The notes below the pieces were generated by a model. It was not told where the DNA came from. It worked only from the letters and a program-made list of their open reading frames with translations, and did no database searches. The translations under genes and the position numbers were made by a program. DNA of 64,000 bases from Brevibacterium sanguinis. Lineage in GTDB: Bacteria; Actinomycetota; Actinomycetes; Actinomycetales; Brevibacteriaceae. How positions within the stretch are numbered: the first letter of the stretch is position 1; each line of letters begins with the position of its first letter. Shown one piece after another: positions 33,071 to 48,087 of this stretch. The DNA lies in assembly GCF_003315415.1 (NCBI RefSeq), contig NZ_QNSB01000004.1, positions 186,001 through 250,000 of the forward strand. The letters are read 5' to 3'.

Positions 33071-34531
33071 ATGTCCGAGTTCGATTCCCCCCTCTTCATC
33101 AACGGTCGGGAGCGCTTCACCGACGACACGCTCAAGATCGCCGATCCCGGCAAACCCGGTCGCGTCGTGGGCACCGCCGCGGCGGCGAGCGCAGACGACG
33201 TCGCGGACGCGGTCGCGGCCGCCGAAACGGCCTTTCCGGCATGGTCGGCCCTGACCGGCCCCGAGCGCGCGAGCGCGATGGCCGCGGCGATCCAGGGCAT
33301 CGCCGACCACCGCGACGACGCCGCCGCGATCCTGTCGCAGGAGAACGGCAAGGTCGTGCACGAGGCCTGGGTCGACTCCCTGGTCTTCGAGCTGCGCTGG
33401 AACCTCGCGCTGGAGCACCGCGACGACGTCGACGCGACCGAGCAGCTTCACCCGGTTCCGGGAGCGATTCCCAATTCGACCAGCATCACCTATCAGCCGA
33501 TGGGCGTGGTCACGATCATCGTGCCCTTCAACTGGCCGATCGCGATCCTCGGCGCGGCGCTGCCGCACGCGCTCCTCGCCGGCAACACCGTCATCGTCAA
33601 GCCGCCGCCGACGGCTCCGCTGGCTACCGCTCGGGTGGTCCAACGGATCGCCGAGCAGCTGCCGGCGGGCGTGCTGCAGGTGGTCACCGGGCGCGACGCC
33701 GACCTGTCGGGCCTGATCTCGAACGAGAAGATCGCGAAGGTCGGCTTCACCGGCAGCGTGCGCGGCGGGAAGACGATCATGGAGCTGGCCGCGAAGTCGC
33801 TGACCCCGGTCACCCTCGAGCTCGGCGGCAACGACGCGGCGGTCTTCCTCGCAGACGCTCCGCTGGACGACGAGCACCTCGACAGGCTCTTCGGCGCCGT
33901 CTACGACACGACCGGTCAGATCTGCATGAACGCCAAGCGCGTCCTCGTGCACCGCTCGCGCATGGATGAGCTCGTCGCGGGTCTCGAGTCCCGGCTCGCC
34001 CGGGTCGTGCTCGGCTACGGCCTCGACGAATCCCAGGGCACGACCATGGGTCCCCTGCACTCACCCAGCCAGAAGGCGTTCGTGGACGATCTCATCCGCG
34101 AGGCGAAGGAGGCGGGCGCCGACGTGCGCGAGTTCGGGGAGCTGCCCGGCGGCGATCTCGAGGGCGGCAACTTCGTGAGGCCGGCACTGGTGGTGGACGC
34201 GGACCCCGCACTGCGCGTGGTCACGGAAGAGCAGTTCGGTCCGGTGGTTCCCGTCATCCCGTTCGACAGCGAGGAGGAGGCGATCCGCCTCGCCAACGAC
34301 ACCTGGGCCGGCCTCGGGAACTCGGTGTGGACCGCGGACCCCGCCGCTGCGCAGCGCGTCGCCCCGCAGCTGCAGTCAGGCTATGTGTGGGTCAACGACC
34401 ATGGCGCCACCCGTCTTGACCTGCGCGCCCCCTTCGGCGGGGTCAAGCAGTCGGGCATCGGGCGCGAACAGGGCATCCACGGTGTGCGGGACTTCCAGCA
34501 GCCGCACGCGGTGTCGGTGATCACGGAGTAG
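33071..34531 (+). CDS. NAD(P)-dependent aldehyde dehydrogenase
   Basis: The 486-residue enzyme has the ALDH Rossmann motif (FTGSVRGGKTIME), the general base Glu in VTLELGGND, the catalytic Cys in TTGQICMNAKRV and the C-terminal PFGGVKQSGIGREQG. It oxidises an aldehyde to an acid in the cytoplasm. By position, before the metF-purU-ligM-like operon, a benzaldehyde such as vanillin or syringaldehyde is a good candidate, but the family is broad. It is divergent from the MFS gene with a TTGAC/GTCAA dyad in the gap. Confidence 0.88.
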   Translation: MSEFDSPLFINGRERFTDDTLKIADPGKPGRVVGTAAAASADDVADAVAAAETAFPAWSALTGPERASAMAAAIQGIADHRDDAAAILSQENGKVVHEAWVDSLVFELRWNLALEHRDDVDATEQLHPVPGAIPNSTSITYQPMGVVTIIVPFNWPIAILGAALPHALLAGNTVIVKPPPTAPLATARVVQRIAEQLPAGVLQVVTGRDADLSGLISNEKIAKVGFTGSVRGGKTIMELAAKSLTPVTLELGGNDAAVFLADAPLDDEHLDRLFGAVYDTTGQICMNAKRVLVHRSRMDELVAGLESRLARVVLGYGLDESQGTTMGPLHSPSQKAFVDDLIREAKEAGADVREFGELPGGDLEGGNFVRPALVVDADPALRVVTEEQFGPVVPVIPFDSEEEAIRLANDTWAGLGNSVWTADPAAAQRVAPQLQSGYVWVNDHGATRLDLRAPFGGVKQSGIGREQGIHGVRDFQQPHAVSVITE

Positions 34532-34574
34532 GTCGTCGGGCGGCGACCGGCCCGGCACTTCCATGCTCCGAATT

Positions 34575-34609
34575 TACCTATGTACATTCCCTACATGCAT
34601 AGGTATGCT
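34575..34609 (+). promoter_or_regulatory. Promoter overlapped by a palindromic (PadR-like) operator upstream of metF
   Basis: TACCTATG (34575-34582) and CATAGGTA (34598-34605) form a perfect 8-bp dyad. TGTACA (34581-34586) and TATGCT (34604-34609) are spaced 17 bases as -35 and -10. The inner ATGTACAT and CTACATGC resemble PadR boxes, and a padR gene closes this operon, so repression by occlusion is likely. Confidence 0.6.
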
Positions 34610-45330: not shown

Positions 45331-46684
45331 GGGAGTACGGTGCCGGCGCCACTCTCGCACGCACACGCACCTGCCGGTGGCGTTCGACGGACGGCTTGGC
45401 CGTGTTCGGGTCCTCGCCCCACAGCACCTCCACCTCGGTGCCGGGCTCGGCATAGTCGGGCTCGACGCTCGCCAGCGACAGGAAAATCTGCTCATTCACG
45501 CTGTAGCCCACGTCGTGGGACAGACCGACGGCGTCGTCGCCGCAGCGCACGAGGTCGACCTGATGCTGGCCATAGCGGGCCTTCGGGAACTCGAGGAACT
45601 TCGCCGGCAGGCCGTCTTCGTACGCGGAACGCTGGATCGCCGCGACGTCCTCGGGATCCCAGACGAGCGACACCTTGACCCGATGCGCCCCAGCGGCGCG
45701 GCGCTCGAGCGCGGCTCTGCCGATGAAGTCATGGTCGAACCTGATCGTGCGACCGTAGCCGAGTTCGTACGGGGAGAGATAGTAGTCCTCGATGTCCTCG
45801 GATTCGAACGAGCCGGCCAGCGACCCGAGGCGGGCCGCCGGCAGCCAGGCGAGATACTCCTCGCTCCCCCGTCCCGTGTATATCGCGGGAAGCGGCGACG
45901 GCACCCACGCCGATTCGAGGTTCGCCGAGGAGTAGGCGCGCGAACCGACGAGCGTCAGCCCGAATTCGTCCCCCGCCTCGAGCAGCGCCTCCCGCACCCG
46001 CTCCCCCTCGACCCAGGGTCCGAACAGCTCGAAGCCGGGCATGCCCGCCATCCCGTGCCGGAGCGAACGGACGGTGACCCCGGCGATCTCGAAGGTCTCC
46101 ATTCCGAAGAACCGCGTCTCGGGCGCGGGGCGGCCCGTCACCCTCTCGAGCAGCGGCAGGGCGTTCGGTCCCTGCAGTTCGTACCGATAGACCTTCGGAT
46201 TCCCACCGCCGGCCGCCGCCCGCGCGATCGAGTTCGGGTCGCGGTCGAAGCTCACGTCATATCCACCGGTCTCACCGTGGTACTGCACCCAGTCGAGCAC
46301 CATGTGCCAGCCGACGAGGTCGTACTCGTCATCCGCCGCTCCGGCCGCACCGCTGAGATGGAACAGGATCGCGTCGCCGACGAGATGACCCTCGTGGTTG
46401 ACGGCGATGAATTGCTTCGCGGCGTTCGCAGGGAAGCGGGCGAAGCTGTTGACACCGGTGTCGCTGAGCAGGCGCGCGGCGTCGCGACCGCGGATGAAAA
46501 GGTCGCTCATGTGGTGGGACTGGTCGAGCAGCGCCACGGACTCTCGCCAGGCGCGCTGTTCCTCGATCCAGTTCGTGAACTCCGGCCGGACCGGGAACTG
46601 CGTCGGCAGGGCCTGCGCATTCCTCAGGTAGGAGACCGGTCCTCCGGCTGCGGCGATCGCCTCGGCGGCCGACTGCGACGTCAT
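45299..46684 (-). CDS. LigM/DesA-like tetrahydrofolate-dependent O-demethylase, diverged copy (copy 3)
   Basis: The 461-residue protein keeps the GcvT/LigM frame: [65 protein letters not shown] (with the conserved Tyr) and [13 protein letters not shown]. It is less like the other two, with a Gly/Ala loop insertion near residue 110 and GGYDVSFDRDPNSIARAAAGGGN where they have SPSRP. A different methoxy substrate is therefore plausible. Its ATG overlaps the upstream stop as TGATG. Confidence 0.8.
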   Translation of the reverse strand: MTSQSAAEAIAAAGGPVSYLRNAQALPTQFPVRPEFTNWIEEQRAWRESVALLDQSHHMSDLFIRGRDAARLLSDTGVNSFARFPANAAKQFIAVNHEGHLVGDAILFHLSGAAGAADDEYDLVGWHMVLDWVQYHGETGGYDVSFDRDPNSIARAAAGGGNPKVYRYELQGPNALPLLERVTGRPAPETRFFGMETFEIAGVTVRSLRHGMAGMPGFELFGPWVEGERVREALLEAGDEFGLTLVGSRAYSSANLESAWVPSPLPAIYTGRGSEEYLAWLPAARLGSLAGSFESEDIEDYYLSPYELGYGRTIRFDHDFIGRAALERRAAGAHRVKVSLVWDPEDVAAIQRSAYEDGLPAKFLEFPKARYGQHQVDLVRCGDDAVGLSHDVGYSVNEQIFLSLASVEPDYAEPGTEVEVLWGEDPNTAKPSVERHRQVRVRARVAPAPYSRFARESYRRT

Positions 46685-48087
46685 CACAGCTCACCGGTGG
46701 TGCGCCAGCCGCCCTGGTACTCCCGGCGCGCCGTCTCGGCGTACGGCACGGGGCTGACGATCGCCCGGACGGCGAGCTGCTCGTGCGGCTCGACGGTGGT
46801 CTTGTCGGAGCCGCCGTCGGGTTCGCCCCACATCACGCGCACCTCGGCGCCGATGGGCACATCGCGATCGACCGTCGCCAGCGACAGTCCGCGCTTCTCG
46901 TTGGCCGTGACGCCAGTGAACAGCGACAGACCGACGGTGCTGCCGTCGGCGTCGATCACGGCGTCGAAGTTCGAGGAGCCGTAGTTCGCGTTCGGTAGGT
47001 CGAAGAACTGGTAGCCGGGACCGTCGCGGTCGATGACGGTGGTGAGCAGCTTCGCCAGGTCCTCGTCGTTCCACGCGAGAGTGACCTTCTTGCGGCTTCG
47101 CTCGGCGTCGACCTGCTCGAGGGCGTCGCGGCCGATGAAATCGTGGTCGAACTTCACGAATGAGCCGTACCCGAGCTCCCAGGGGTTGAGGTAGTAGTCC
47201 TCGATGTCCTCGGAGACGAATGATCCCGCGATCGCGTTGATCGCCTCGTAGCTGTCGATCCCGAGCCACTCGCGGTAGCCGCGTTCGGCCTCGCTCGAAT
47301 AGATCGCCGGCAGCGGTGAGGGGATCCAGCCCGACTCCAGCGTGTTCGAGGAGTAGGCGCGGGACCCGCAGGGCTCGATGCCGAATTCGGCGCCGGCGGT
47401 GAGAATCGCGTCGCGGATCCTGCCGTGCTGGTCGTAGGGAGCCCAGAGCTCGAGCCCCGGAGCGCCCGCCATGCCGTGACGCAGGGTGCGCACGGTTTCG
47501 CCGGCGACGTCGATGGTGCCCATGCGGAAGAACCTGACCTGCTCGACCGGAGCGCCGTTGAGCTTCTCGATGACCTCCCAGGCCCGGGGACCTTGGATCT
47601 GGAAGCGGCAGTACTCGCGGTGCACGGCCGCTCCGTAGGGACGGGAGGGGGACCGATCGTCATAGAGCACCTCGACGTCGTAGCCGCCCGTCTCGGCATG
47701 GAACTGCAGCCAGTTCGCGCCGGGGGCGCGACCGACGTAGACGTACTCGTCGTCGGCCTCGTGAAAGAGGATCCCGTCGCCGATGACGCCGCCGTTCGAC
47801 GCGACCGGCACGAACTGCTTCGCCTGACCGACCGGGAAGTTCGCGAACGAGTTGATGCCCGTGTCGCTGAGCAGTCTGAGCGCGTCGGGGCCCTTGAGGA
47901 AGAGGTTGACCATGTGATGGGTCTGATCGAACAGCACAGCGGTCTCCCGCCACGCCTTCTGCTCGCGCCGCCAGTTGCTGAACTCGGCCGGCACGACCGG
48001 ATAGATGTAGGTGCCAAGCTTGGAATTGCGGAGCATGTCGACGACGCTGCCGCGCTCGTCGATCAGTTCTTGCAGGTTCTTCGGCAT
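46684..48087 (-). CDS. LigM/DesA-like tetrahydrofolate-dependent O-demethylase, copy 2
   Basis: The 467-residue protein is clearly paralogous to copy 1 with the same landmarks: [74 protein letters not shown] and [14 protein letters not shown]. It would transfer an aryl methyl to tetrahydrofolate. It is the first gene of a two-gene minus-strand operon with copy 3, and diverges from galB across a region with GntR-type boxes. Confidence 0.85.

What the first reader, a model, noticed from the sequence alone, without database searches (positions are those of the whole stretch)
33071..48087. Tetrahydrofolate-dependent aryl O-demethylation system in an actinobacterium, with three LigM-like proteins
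LigM/DesA demethylases are known mainly from sphingomonads; Gram-positive aerobes usually use VanAB or P450s. Here one LigM-like gene is in an operon with metF and purU, and two more lie in a second operon, beside an aldehyde dehydrogenase, an ABC importer and ring-cleavage genes. MetF and PurU supply oxidation and release of the methyl; FolD is missing from the window and must be encoded elsewhere. This gives a coherent C1 route from ArOCH3 to formate.
Basis: partly seen in the sequence, partly recalled or inferred. Interest (0 to 1): 0.85.

Follow-up and report, generated by a model that had tools for sequence, protein, structure and literature searches.

The report
Methoxybenzoate-degradation island in Leucobacter-like bacterium
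An actinobacterium carries a gene island predicted to strip methyl groups from lignin-type aromatic acids onto the vitamin folate and then open the gallate ring; the demethylation part is a known kind of system, while the predicted ring-opening enzyme is of an unexpected type.

Summary
Three LigM-family genes, metF, purU, an aldehyde dehydrogenase, a Liv-type importer and ring-cleavage genes lie at the stated coordinates with open frames. LigMa (36513-37919) and LigMb (46684-48087) pass NCBI's LigM cut-off, group with SYK-6 LigM and keep the eight pocket residues compared. LigMc (45299-46687) fails the LigM and DesA cut-offs, falls in a third clade and lacks the Y31 and R122 equivalents. MetF is closest to PDB 7xg9; FolD is elsewhere in the genome. 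The rarity claim is outdated: LigM-type genes in Actinobacteria are in print, and folate-dependent demethylenases from Rhodococcus and Arthrobacter were assayed. The genome has no detected LigB-type dioxygenase, and GalC/VOC linkage recurs in distant Actinomycetota, so I predict a VOC-type gallate dioxygenase. Best reading: the P450 plus LigMc, LigMb and LigMa take methoxybenzoates to gallate and protocatechuate; the VOC enzyme plus GalDBC degrade gallate, and protocatechuate goes to intradiol cleavage encoded elsewhere. Nothing was tested biochemically.

The parts
33071..34531 (+). aldehyde dehydrogenase, specificity not assigned
   Evidence: PF00171 404.5 bits; no cut-off met among the 25 of 42 NCBIfam families shown
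34654..35505 (+). MetF of the 7xg9 type, proposed to oxidise 5-methyl-THF
   Evidence: best PDB match 7xg9 295 bits, next 35.6; passes Pfam PF02219 weakly (31.2, cut-off 24) but not TIGR00676 (33.8, cut-off 293.7); a stronger MetF lies at G000:C19
35515..36459 (+). PurU, 10-formyl-THF deformylase, with a 23-aa tandem duplication
   Evidence: TIGR00655 368.8 bits, cut-off 285.95; duplication
36233..36374 (+). 69-bp exact in-frame tandem duplication inside purU (73-bp match at 36233 and 36302)
   Evidence: relatives align in two pieces without it
36513..37919 (+). LigMa, LigM-type O-demethylase; proposed vanillate enzyme
   Evidence: NF047885 874.7 bits over cut-off 580; pocket residues kept
38014..38601 (+). 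PadR-family regulator
   Evidence: PF03551; within 1.5 kb of 18 of 22 LigMa-like genes in 80 loci
38686..39447 (+). GntR/FCD regulator
   Evidence: PF00392 and PF07729; 50-53% relatives beside gal genes in six loci L120-L125
39530..44190 (-). Liv-type ABC importer: substrate-binding protein, two permeases, two ATPases (subunit names from reading the sequence)
   Evidence: PF13458 for the binding protein; LivG within 1.5 kb of 17 of 74 LigMb-like genes
44402..45184 (+). NAD-binding_2/DUF1932 dehydrogenase, role unknown
   Evidence: relative next to VOC in 6 and next to GalB in 1 of 8 distant loci
45299..46687 (-). LigMc, third-clade LigM/DesA relative; proposed syringate O-demethylase
   Evidence: neighbourhood
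46684..48087 (-). LigMb, LigM-type O-demethylase; proposed 3-O-methylgallate to gallate
   Evidence: NF047885 889.4 bits; GalB within 1.5 kb of 38 of 74 LigMb-like genes
48268..49023 (+). GalB-like PIG-L protein, proposed oxalomesaconate hydratase
   Evidence: PF02585 85 bits; assignment by position; that GalB is a PIG-L protein is recalled
49020..49838 (+). GalC/LigK, 4-carboxy-4-hydroxy-2-oxoadipate aldolase
   Evidence: NF006731 312.8 bits, cut-off 179; TIGR02798 274.2, below its cut-off 304.5
49835..50917 (+). GalD, 4-oxalomesaconate tautomerase
   Evidence: NF033377 445.5 bits, cut-off 440
50958..51908 (+). VOC-superfamily (type I) extradiol dioxygenase, proposed gallate dioxygenase
52001..53233 (-). 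CYP199-like cytochrome P450, proposed para-O-demethylase
   Evidence: PDB 9g9q 566.8 bits, CYP199A4 4dnz 476.8 bits
53252..54220 (-). 2Fe-2S/FAD reductase, presumed partner of the P450
   Evidence: PF00111, PF00970; 18 bp from the P450
54317..55186 (+). IclR regulator
   Evidence: PF01614, PF09339

Best explanation
A catabolic island for methoxylated benzoates. The ABC importer (inferred) brings in the acids. The P450/reductase pair removes a para O-methyl (veratrate to vanillate, 3,4,5-trimethoxybenzoate to syringate; inferred from CYP199 kinship). LigMc takes syringate to 3-O-methylgallate (inferred from neighbourhood), LigMb takes 3-O-methylgallate to gallate and LigMa vanillate to protocatechuate (inferred from family and operon place). 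Each transfers the methyl to tetrahydrofolate. The dedicated MetF runs in the oxidative direction, FolD elsewhere continues to 10-formyl-THF, and PurU (if its duplication is tolerated, or one of its two paralogues) releases formate. Gallate is opened by the VOC-type extradiol dioxygenase to 4-oxalomesaconate, which GalD, GalB and GalC convert to pyruvate and oxaloacetate; protocatechuate goes to the intradiol dioxygenase encoded elsewhere. Shown here: gene content, family membership of LigMa, LigMb, PurU, GalC and GalD, kinship of MetF, catalytic residues, synteny. Inferred: every substrate and every flux direction.
For: LigMa/LigMb over the LigM equivalog cut-off, 721 and 691 bits to LigM structures 5tl4/5x1i over nearly full length, in one clade with SYK-6 LigM (UFBoot 100). 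MetF nearest 7xg9; a review says the SYK-6 enzyme prefers oxidation of methyl-THF and co-evolved with LigM (PMC13001107, passages; that 7xg9 is this enzyme is recalled). MetF within 1.5 kb of 19 and PurU of 17 of 22 LigMa-like genes. FolD present, two adjacent intradiol-family genes present, no LigB-family match in this 99.84%-complete genome. GalC and GalD over a cut-off. VOC within 1.5 kb of 42 of 49 GalD genes in loci fetched through LigMb; beside GalD in 7 of the 8 other over-cut-off GalD genomes of a 396-genome phylum sample, six of them one genus and one already in the first set; beside GalC and GalB in 7 of 8 further VOC genomes.
Against: No biochemistry. LigMc lacks the arginine recalled as the carboxylate anchor of LigM, which speaks against a simple benzoate pocket. 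None of the eight further VOC genomes has a detected GalD. The six g9 genomes also encode LigB-family proteins elsewhere, so there the VOC enzyme is not the only candidate, and one of the six shows no GalB in the locus (L122). One GalD genome has LigAB-type genes instead of VOC (L118); eight genomes with GalD matches below the cut-off were not examined. The best PDB match of the VOC enzyme, 9wgj, is labelled catechol 1,2-dioxygenase. The PurU duplication may impair it.
Confidence: 0.7

Rival explanations
1. The VOC enzyme cleaves another ring (protocatechuate, catechol, homoprotocatechuate or 3-O-methylgallate), and the gal genes process its product or are only neighbours.
For: It misses the NCBIfam catechol 2,3-dioxygenase cut-off only narrowly (296.9 against 320.2 bits); best PDB chain 9wgj is labelled a catechol dioxygenase; the eight VOC genomes outside the GalD set have no detected GalD.
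Against: GalB and GalC act downstream of oxalomesaconate, which gallate cleavage yields directly (PMC8431788 and PMC12314914, passages); GalC-VOC linkage recurs across the phylum; no LigB-family candidate in this genome; intradiol genes are present for protocatechuate.
Confidence: 0.27
2. LigMc is not a syringate enzyme but demethylates a different aryl ether (for example a non-carboxylated guaiacol-type compound) or a methylenedioxy ring.
For: The 48 sequences of its group have F for Y31 and H, W or P for R122; THF-dependent demethylenases exist in Actinobacteria (PMC5547118).
Against: Group members sit beside metF, purU, folD, LigB-type dioxygenase and alpha/beta hydrolase genes, a gene set like that beside DesA in sphingomonad plasmids; here LigMc overlaps LigMb beside gallate genes.
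Confidence: 0.4
3. The three proteins act on N- or S-methyl substrates (sarcosine, dimethylglycine, DMSP type).
For: Same GCV_T domain.
Against: They separate from four other GCV_T-domain proteins of the same genome (ingroup split UFBoot 100); DmdA and SoxA model scores are far below cut-off. No DmdA or characterised sarcosine enzyme was put in the tree.
Confidence: 0.03

Closest known systems
LigM / DesA / MetF / LigH system of Sphingobium sp. SYK-6
   Same: LigM-family demethylases, ligM-metF operon, FolD step; consecutive syringate and 3-O-methylgallate demethylation to gallate (PMC6888825, passages)
   Different: PurU rather than LigH in the operon; LigMc is not DesA; ring opening predicted by a VOC enzyme instead of DesB; protocatechuate predicted to go to intradiol cleavage
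Atu1418-Atu1420 region of Agrobacterium fabrum
   Same: LigM-type demethylase, MetF-like protein and a GntR regulator in one region (PMC7797058, passages)
   Different: no match better than 2 mismatches in the window to the operator printed there; no gal genes in the passages read
Rhodococcus opacus plasmid pRop44186_a cluster (L093)
   Same: LigM-family genes with metF, purU, folD, galC/ligK and PIG-L genes in an actinobacterium
   Different: carries LigAB-type dioxygenase and alpha/beta hydrolase genes; no VOC relative found in the stretch
BrdA and SesA, THF-dependent demethylenases
   Same: GcvT-like folate-dependent enzymes on plant aromatics; BrdA assayed from Rhodococcus and Arthrobacter, SesA cited from Sinomonas (PMC5547118)
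   Different: methylenedioxy substrates; that paper gives BrdA 26.7% identity to LigM and DesA
GalA / DesB gallate dioxygenases
   Same: predicted reaction, gallate to 4-oxalomesaconate
   Different: those are LigB-type (recalled); the enzyme here is VOC-type

Membership tests
LigM (vanillate/3-O-methylgallate O-demethylase) | score over the curated NF047885 cut-off of 580 bits | tested here: met
   LigMa 874.7, LigMb 889.4; LigMc 500.6 does not meet it
LigM (vanillate/3-O-methylgallate O-demethylase) | pocket residues of SYK-6 LigM (Y29, Y31, Q57, H60, R122, E215, Y247, W256; choice and roles recalled) | tested here: met
   8 of 8 in LigMa and LigMb; 5 of 8 in LigMc
LigM (vanillate/3-O-methylgallate O-demethylase) | clade membership with SYK-6 LigM | tested here: met
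   LigMa and LigMb inside a group of 18 with LigM_SYK6, UFBoot 100; LigMc outside
LigM (vanillate/3-O-methylgallate O-demethylase) | THF-dependent methyl transfer from vanillate or 3-O-methylgallate | not testable with these tools
   needs enzyme assay
DesA (syringate O-demethylase), for LigMc | score over the curated NF047633 cut-off of 800 bits | tested here: not met
   547.8 bits; two sphingomonad plasmid proteins reach 849.9 and 901.1
DesA (syringate O-demethylase), for LigMc | clade membership with DesA references | tested here: not met
   separate group, UFBoot 87; LigM plus DesA 97. The references are equivalog matches, not SYK-6 DesA itself
MetF subfamily linked to LigM-type demethylases | closer to the demethylase-linked MetF than to biosynthetic MetF | tested here: met
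   7xg9 295 bits against 35.6 for the next; that 7xg9 is the SYK-6 enzyme is recalled; reverse direction not testable here
GalA/DesB-type gallate dioxygenase | LigB family (PF02900) | tested here: not met
   no PF02900 match in the genome; the VOC enzyme matches PF00903
VOC extradiol dioxygenases | 2-His-1-carboxylate metal site | tested here: met
   H156, H219, E270 aligned with HPCD; kept in 61, 60 and 61 of 61 rows (53 distinct)
CYP199 P450 | close kinship with CYP199 structures | tested here: met
   9g9q 566.8 bits; first chain outside this group 184 bits

The most novel reading that the evidence does not exclude
Actinomycetota open gallate with a VOC-superfamily extradiol dioxygenase, a non-orthologous replacement of GalA/DesB, encoded with GalC and GalB across distant lineages, and feed it with an all-folate demethylation chain whose syringate step is done by a third LigM clade lacking the arginine and tyrosine equivalent to R122 and Y31 of LigM.
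Probability: 0.45. Interest if true: 0.65.

Novelty: new variant of a known kind. Interest (0 to 1): 0.5.

Why it matters
LigM-type demethylation makes no formaldehyde and uses no NADH for the methyl transfer, so actinobacterial versions matter for lignin conversion. A VOC-type gallate dioxygenase would explain how Actinomycetota without a LigB-type enzyme could use gallate, and would correct annotations that now read catechol 2,3-dioxygenase. The third LigM clade is a clear target for learning how this fold changes substrate.

Tried and rejected
Sarcosine/dimethylglycine-type assignment: rejected by family scores and tree. LigMc as DesA: rejected as membership by cut-off and tree, kept as a functional guess. 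SesA-like LigMc: considered from residue numbers printed in PMC5547118; no SesA sequence was at hand, so no test. Agrobacterium-type operator ATGTATACAT: one match with 2 mismatches at 12238, against 1.55 expected by chance. LigB-type dioxygenase in the genome: none detected. Tree supports printed for the ingroup (75) and for LigM plus DesA (100) were shifted by my rerooting; the unrooted values (100 and 97) replace them. Structure prediction and structure searches were not used. Literature: of ten searches, three aimed at gallate cleavage; one search found nothing, and no listed title or abstract start of the other two reports a VOC-type gallate dioxygenase. Papers outside the open-licence library were not searched, so this is no proof that none is in print.
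Full report
What is there. The window is G000:C4:186001-250000 of a 3.77-Mb, 99.84%-complete genome. Its nearest named relatives at the LigMb locus are Leucobacter (89 and 88% identity), then other Microbacteriaceae; the genome's own name is not given. MetF, PurU and LigMa are closely spaced (9 and 53 bp); LigMc/LigMb, GalB/GalC and GalC/GalD overlap by 4 bp each.

The three LigM-like proteins. LigMa and LigMb are 71% identical to each other and 50 and 49% to LigMc. 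LigMa and LigMb exceed the NCBIfam LigM cut-off by about 300 bits and align over nearly their full length with LigM structures 5tl4 and 5x1i. In an alignment of 152 family rows (4 references, 148 open frames from the loci; 151 distinct), I sorted rows by two residues: 102 carry Y31 and R122, 48 carry F at 31 with H, W or P at 122, and 2 are intermediate. LigMc is one of the 48. Because the sorting used the residues, the independent fact is that these 48 form one group in the tree of all 152 (FastTree support 0.997). Two sphingomonad plasmid proteins that pass the DesA cut-off keep Y31 and R122, so LigMc is not DesA. In a 41-row tree (37 ingroup, four GCV_T-domain proteins of the same genome as outgroup) the UFBoot values are: LigM group 100, LigM plus DesA 97, 15 LigMc-group rows 87, ingroup 100. 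The choice and roles of the pocket residues are recalled; I did not read the LigM structure papers. A structure-guided alignment with a catalytic tyrosine is described in PMC9296663 (section 17).

The one-carbon arm. MetF scores 295 bits to PDB 7xg9 and 35.6 to the next chain, and is 45-47% identical to MetF relatives beside DesA in Novosphingobium (L095) and beside a LigM-scoring protein in Agrobacterium (L097). A 2026 review states that SYK-6 MTHFR belongs to a subfamily preferring methyl-THF oxidation, co-evolved with LigM (PMC13001107, passages). The genome has a stronger MetF match on C19 and another on C8, FolD on C15 and two other PurU paralogues on C6 and C15. PurU of the window has an exact 69-bp duplication right after the GPII residues. 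In three same-genus relatives (G414, G396, G403) two pieces are listed that abut at the duplication and overlap in the genome, as expected without the insert; for the fourth close match, G415, only the first piece is listed. Only these 4 of the 24 other same-genus genomes have a match of 64% identity or more, so this purU, and probably the island, is patchy in the genus.

Ring opening. GalC passes NF006731 (not TIGR02798) and GalD passes NF033377; GalB is a PIG-L protein assigned by position. The adjacent dioxygenase is VOC-type: metal ligands H156, H219, E270 and the second-shell H251 and Y260 align with homoprotocatechuate dioxygenase; of 61 homologue rows (53 distinct, one of them this genome's own) one, in L012, lacks the second histidine. 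It is 52% identical to 9wgj and 28% to that dioxygenase. The genome has no detected PF02900 (LigB) protein but two adjacent intradiol-family genes on C13.

Is the link more than chance? Of 80 loci fetched through LigMb, 49 hold GalD; 44 of those hold the VOC gene, 43 within 2.5 kb, and 9 hold a LigB-type gene somewhere. These loci were chosen by LigMb and are related. In a 396-genome phylum sample GalD passes its cut-off in 9 genomes (17 have a match at E 0.001; the 8 weaker ones were not examined). Apart from this genome, 7 of 8 have the VOC gene beside GalD; the eighth (L118) has LigAB-type genes instead. VOC relatives at E 1e-60 or better occur in 16 of the 396: 8 of the 9 GalD genomes, 9 of the 11 genomes with LigM over cut-off, and 8 genomes without a detected GalD. 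Of those last 8, 7 have GalB and GalC next to VOC; five loci also hold two LigM-family genes each, nearest to LigMc at 51-58%. Fisher tests give about 1e-12 (VOC and LigM) and 8e-12 (VOC and GalD), but genomes are related, so these overstate. Against: the six g9 genomes have LigB-family proteins elsewhere.

P450. The P450 matches CYP199 structures and is 18 bp from a 2Fe-2S/FAD reductase. Four of 46 LigMc-like genes have a P450 relative within 1.5 kb. CYP199A4 as a para-methoxybenzoate demethylase is recalled.

LigMc function. In Rhodococcus opacus a LigMc-group gene is followed on the same strand by metF, purU, folD, a LigA-like, a LigB-like and an alpha/beta hydrolase gene; an Amycolatopsis locus (L066) is alike and a Kibdelosporangium locus (L074) too, without a FolD match. 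DesA-scoring genes on two sphingomonad plasmids have metF, purU, folD and an alpha/beta hydrolase gene nearby, one of them with LigAB. The hydrolases are only 28% identical over 89 residues, so this is parallel content, not clear orthology. In the 80 loci, LigB relatives lie within 1.5 kb of 7 of 46 LigMc-like genes and LigMb-like genes of 22 of 46. I infer a syringate-like role with moderate confidence.

Known versus new. Folate-dependent aryl demethylation with MetF is known from SYK-6 (PMC6888825, passages) and Agrobacterium (PMC7797058, passages). In N. aromaticivorans DesA is needed for syringate, and purified LigM acts on 3-O-methylgallate with no detected activity on syringate (PMC8091115, passages). 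LigM-type and DesA-like genes in Actinobacteria are in PMC9296663. A type II actinobacterial dioxygenase that also cleaves gallate is characterised (PMC8431788, passages). The demethylation part is thus a new member of a known kind; the VOC enzyme and the third clade make the island a new variant.

Noticed in passing
36233-36374: Exact 69-bp in-frame tandem duplication in purU, inserting 23 residues after the conserved GPII residues; absent from three same-genus relatives whose pieces are listed. Could be a recent mutation.
   Followed up: partly
44402-45184: A DUF1932/NAD-binding dehydrogenase recurs next to VOC in 6 and next to GalB in 1 of 8 distant loci; no step in the proposed pathway needs it.
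   Followed up: partly
27333-31528: A second aromatic set: VOC dioxygenase (31% identical to the other), FAH-family hydrolase and cyclase-family protein, with a LysR-like regulator (named from reading only).
   Followed up: partly
58445-60514 and 55267-55633: A nucleobase-permease-like ORF appears to run on into a deaminase-like C-terminal part; a 370-bp, 85% identical copy of that end lies about 3 kb away as an apparent fragment. Domain names are from reading the sequence.
   Followed up: partly
L093:5357-7899 and 17096-17353: The Rhodococcus opacus plasmid demethylase cluster also carries a Mur ligase family gene, pabB and folP, which suggests local folate supply for demethylation.
   Followed up: no
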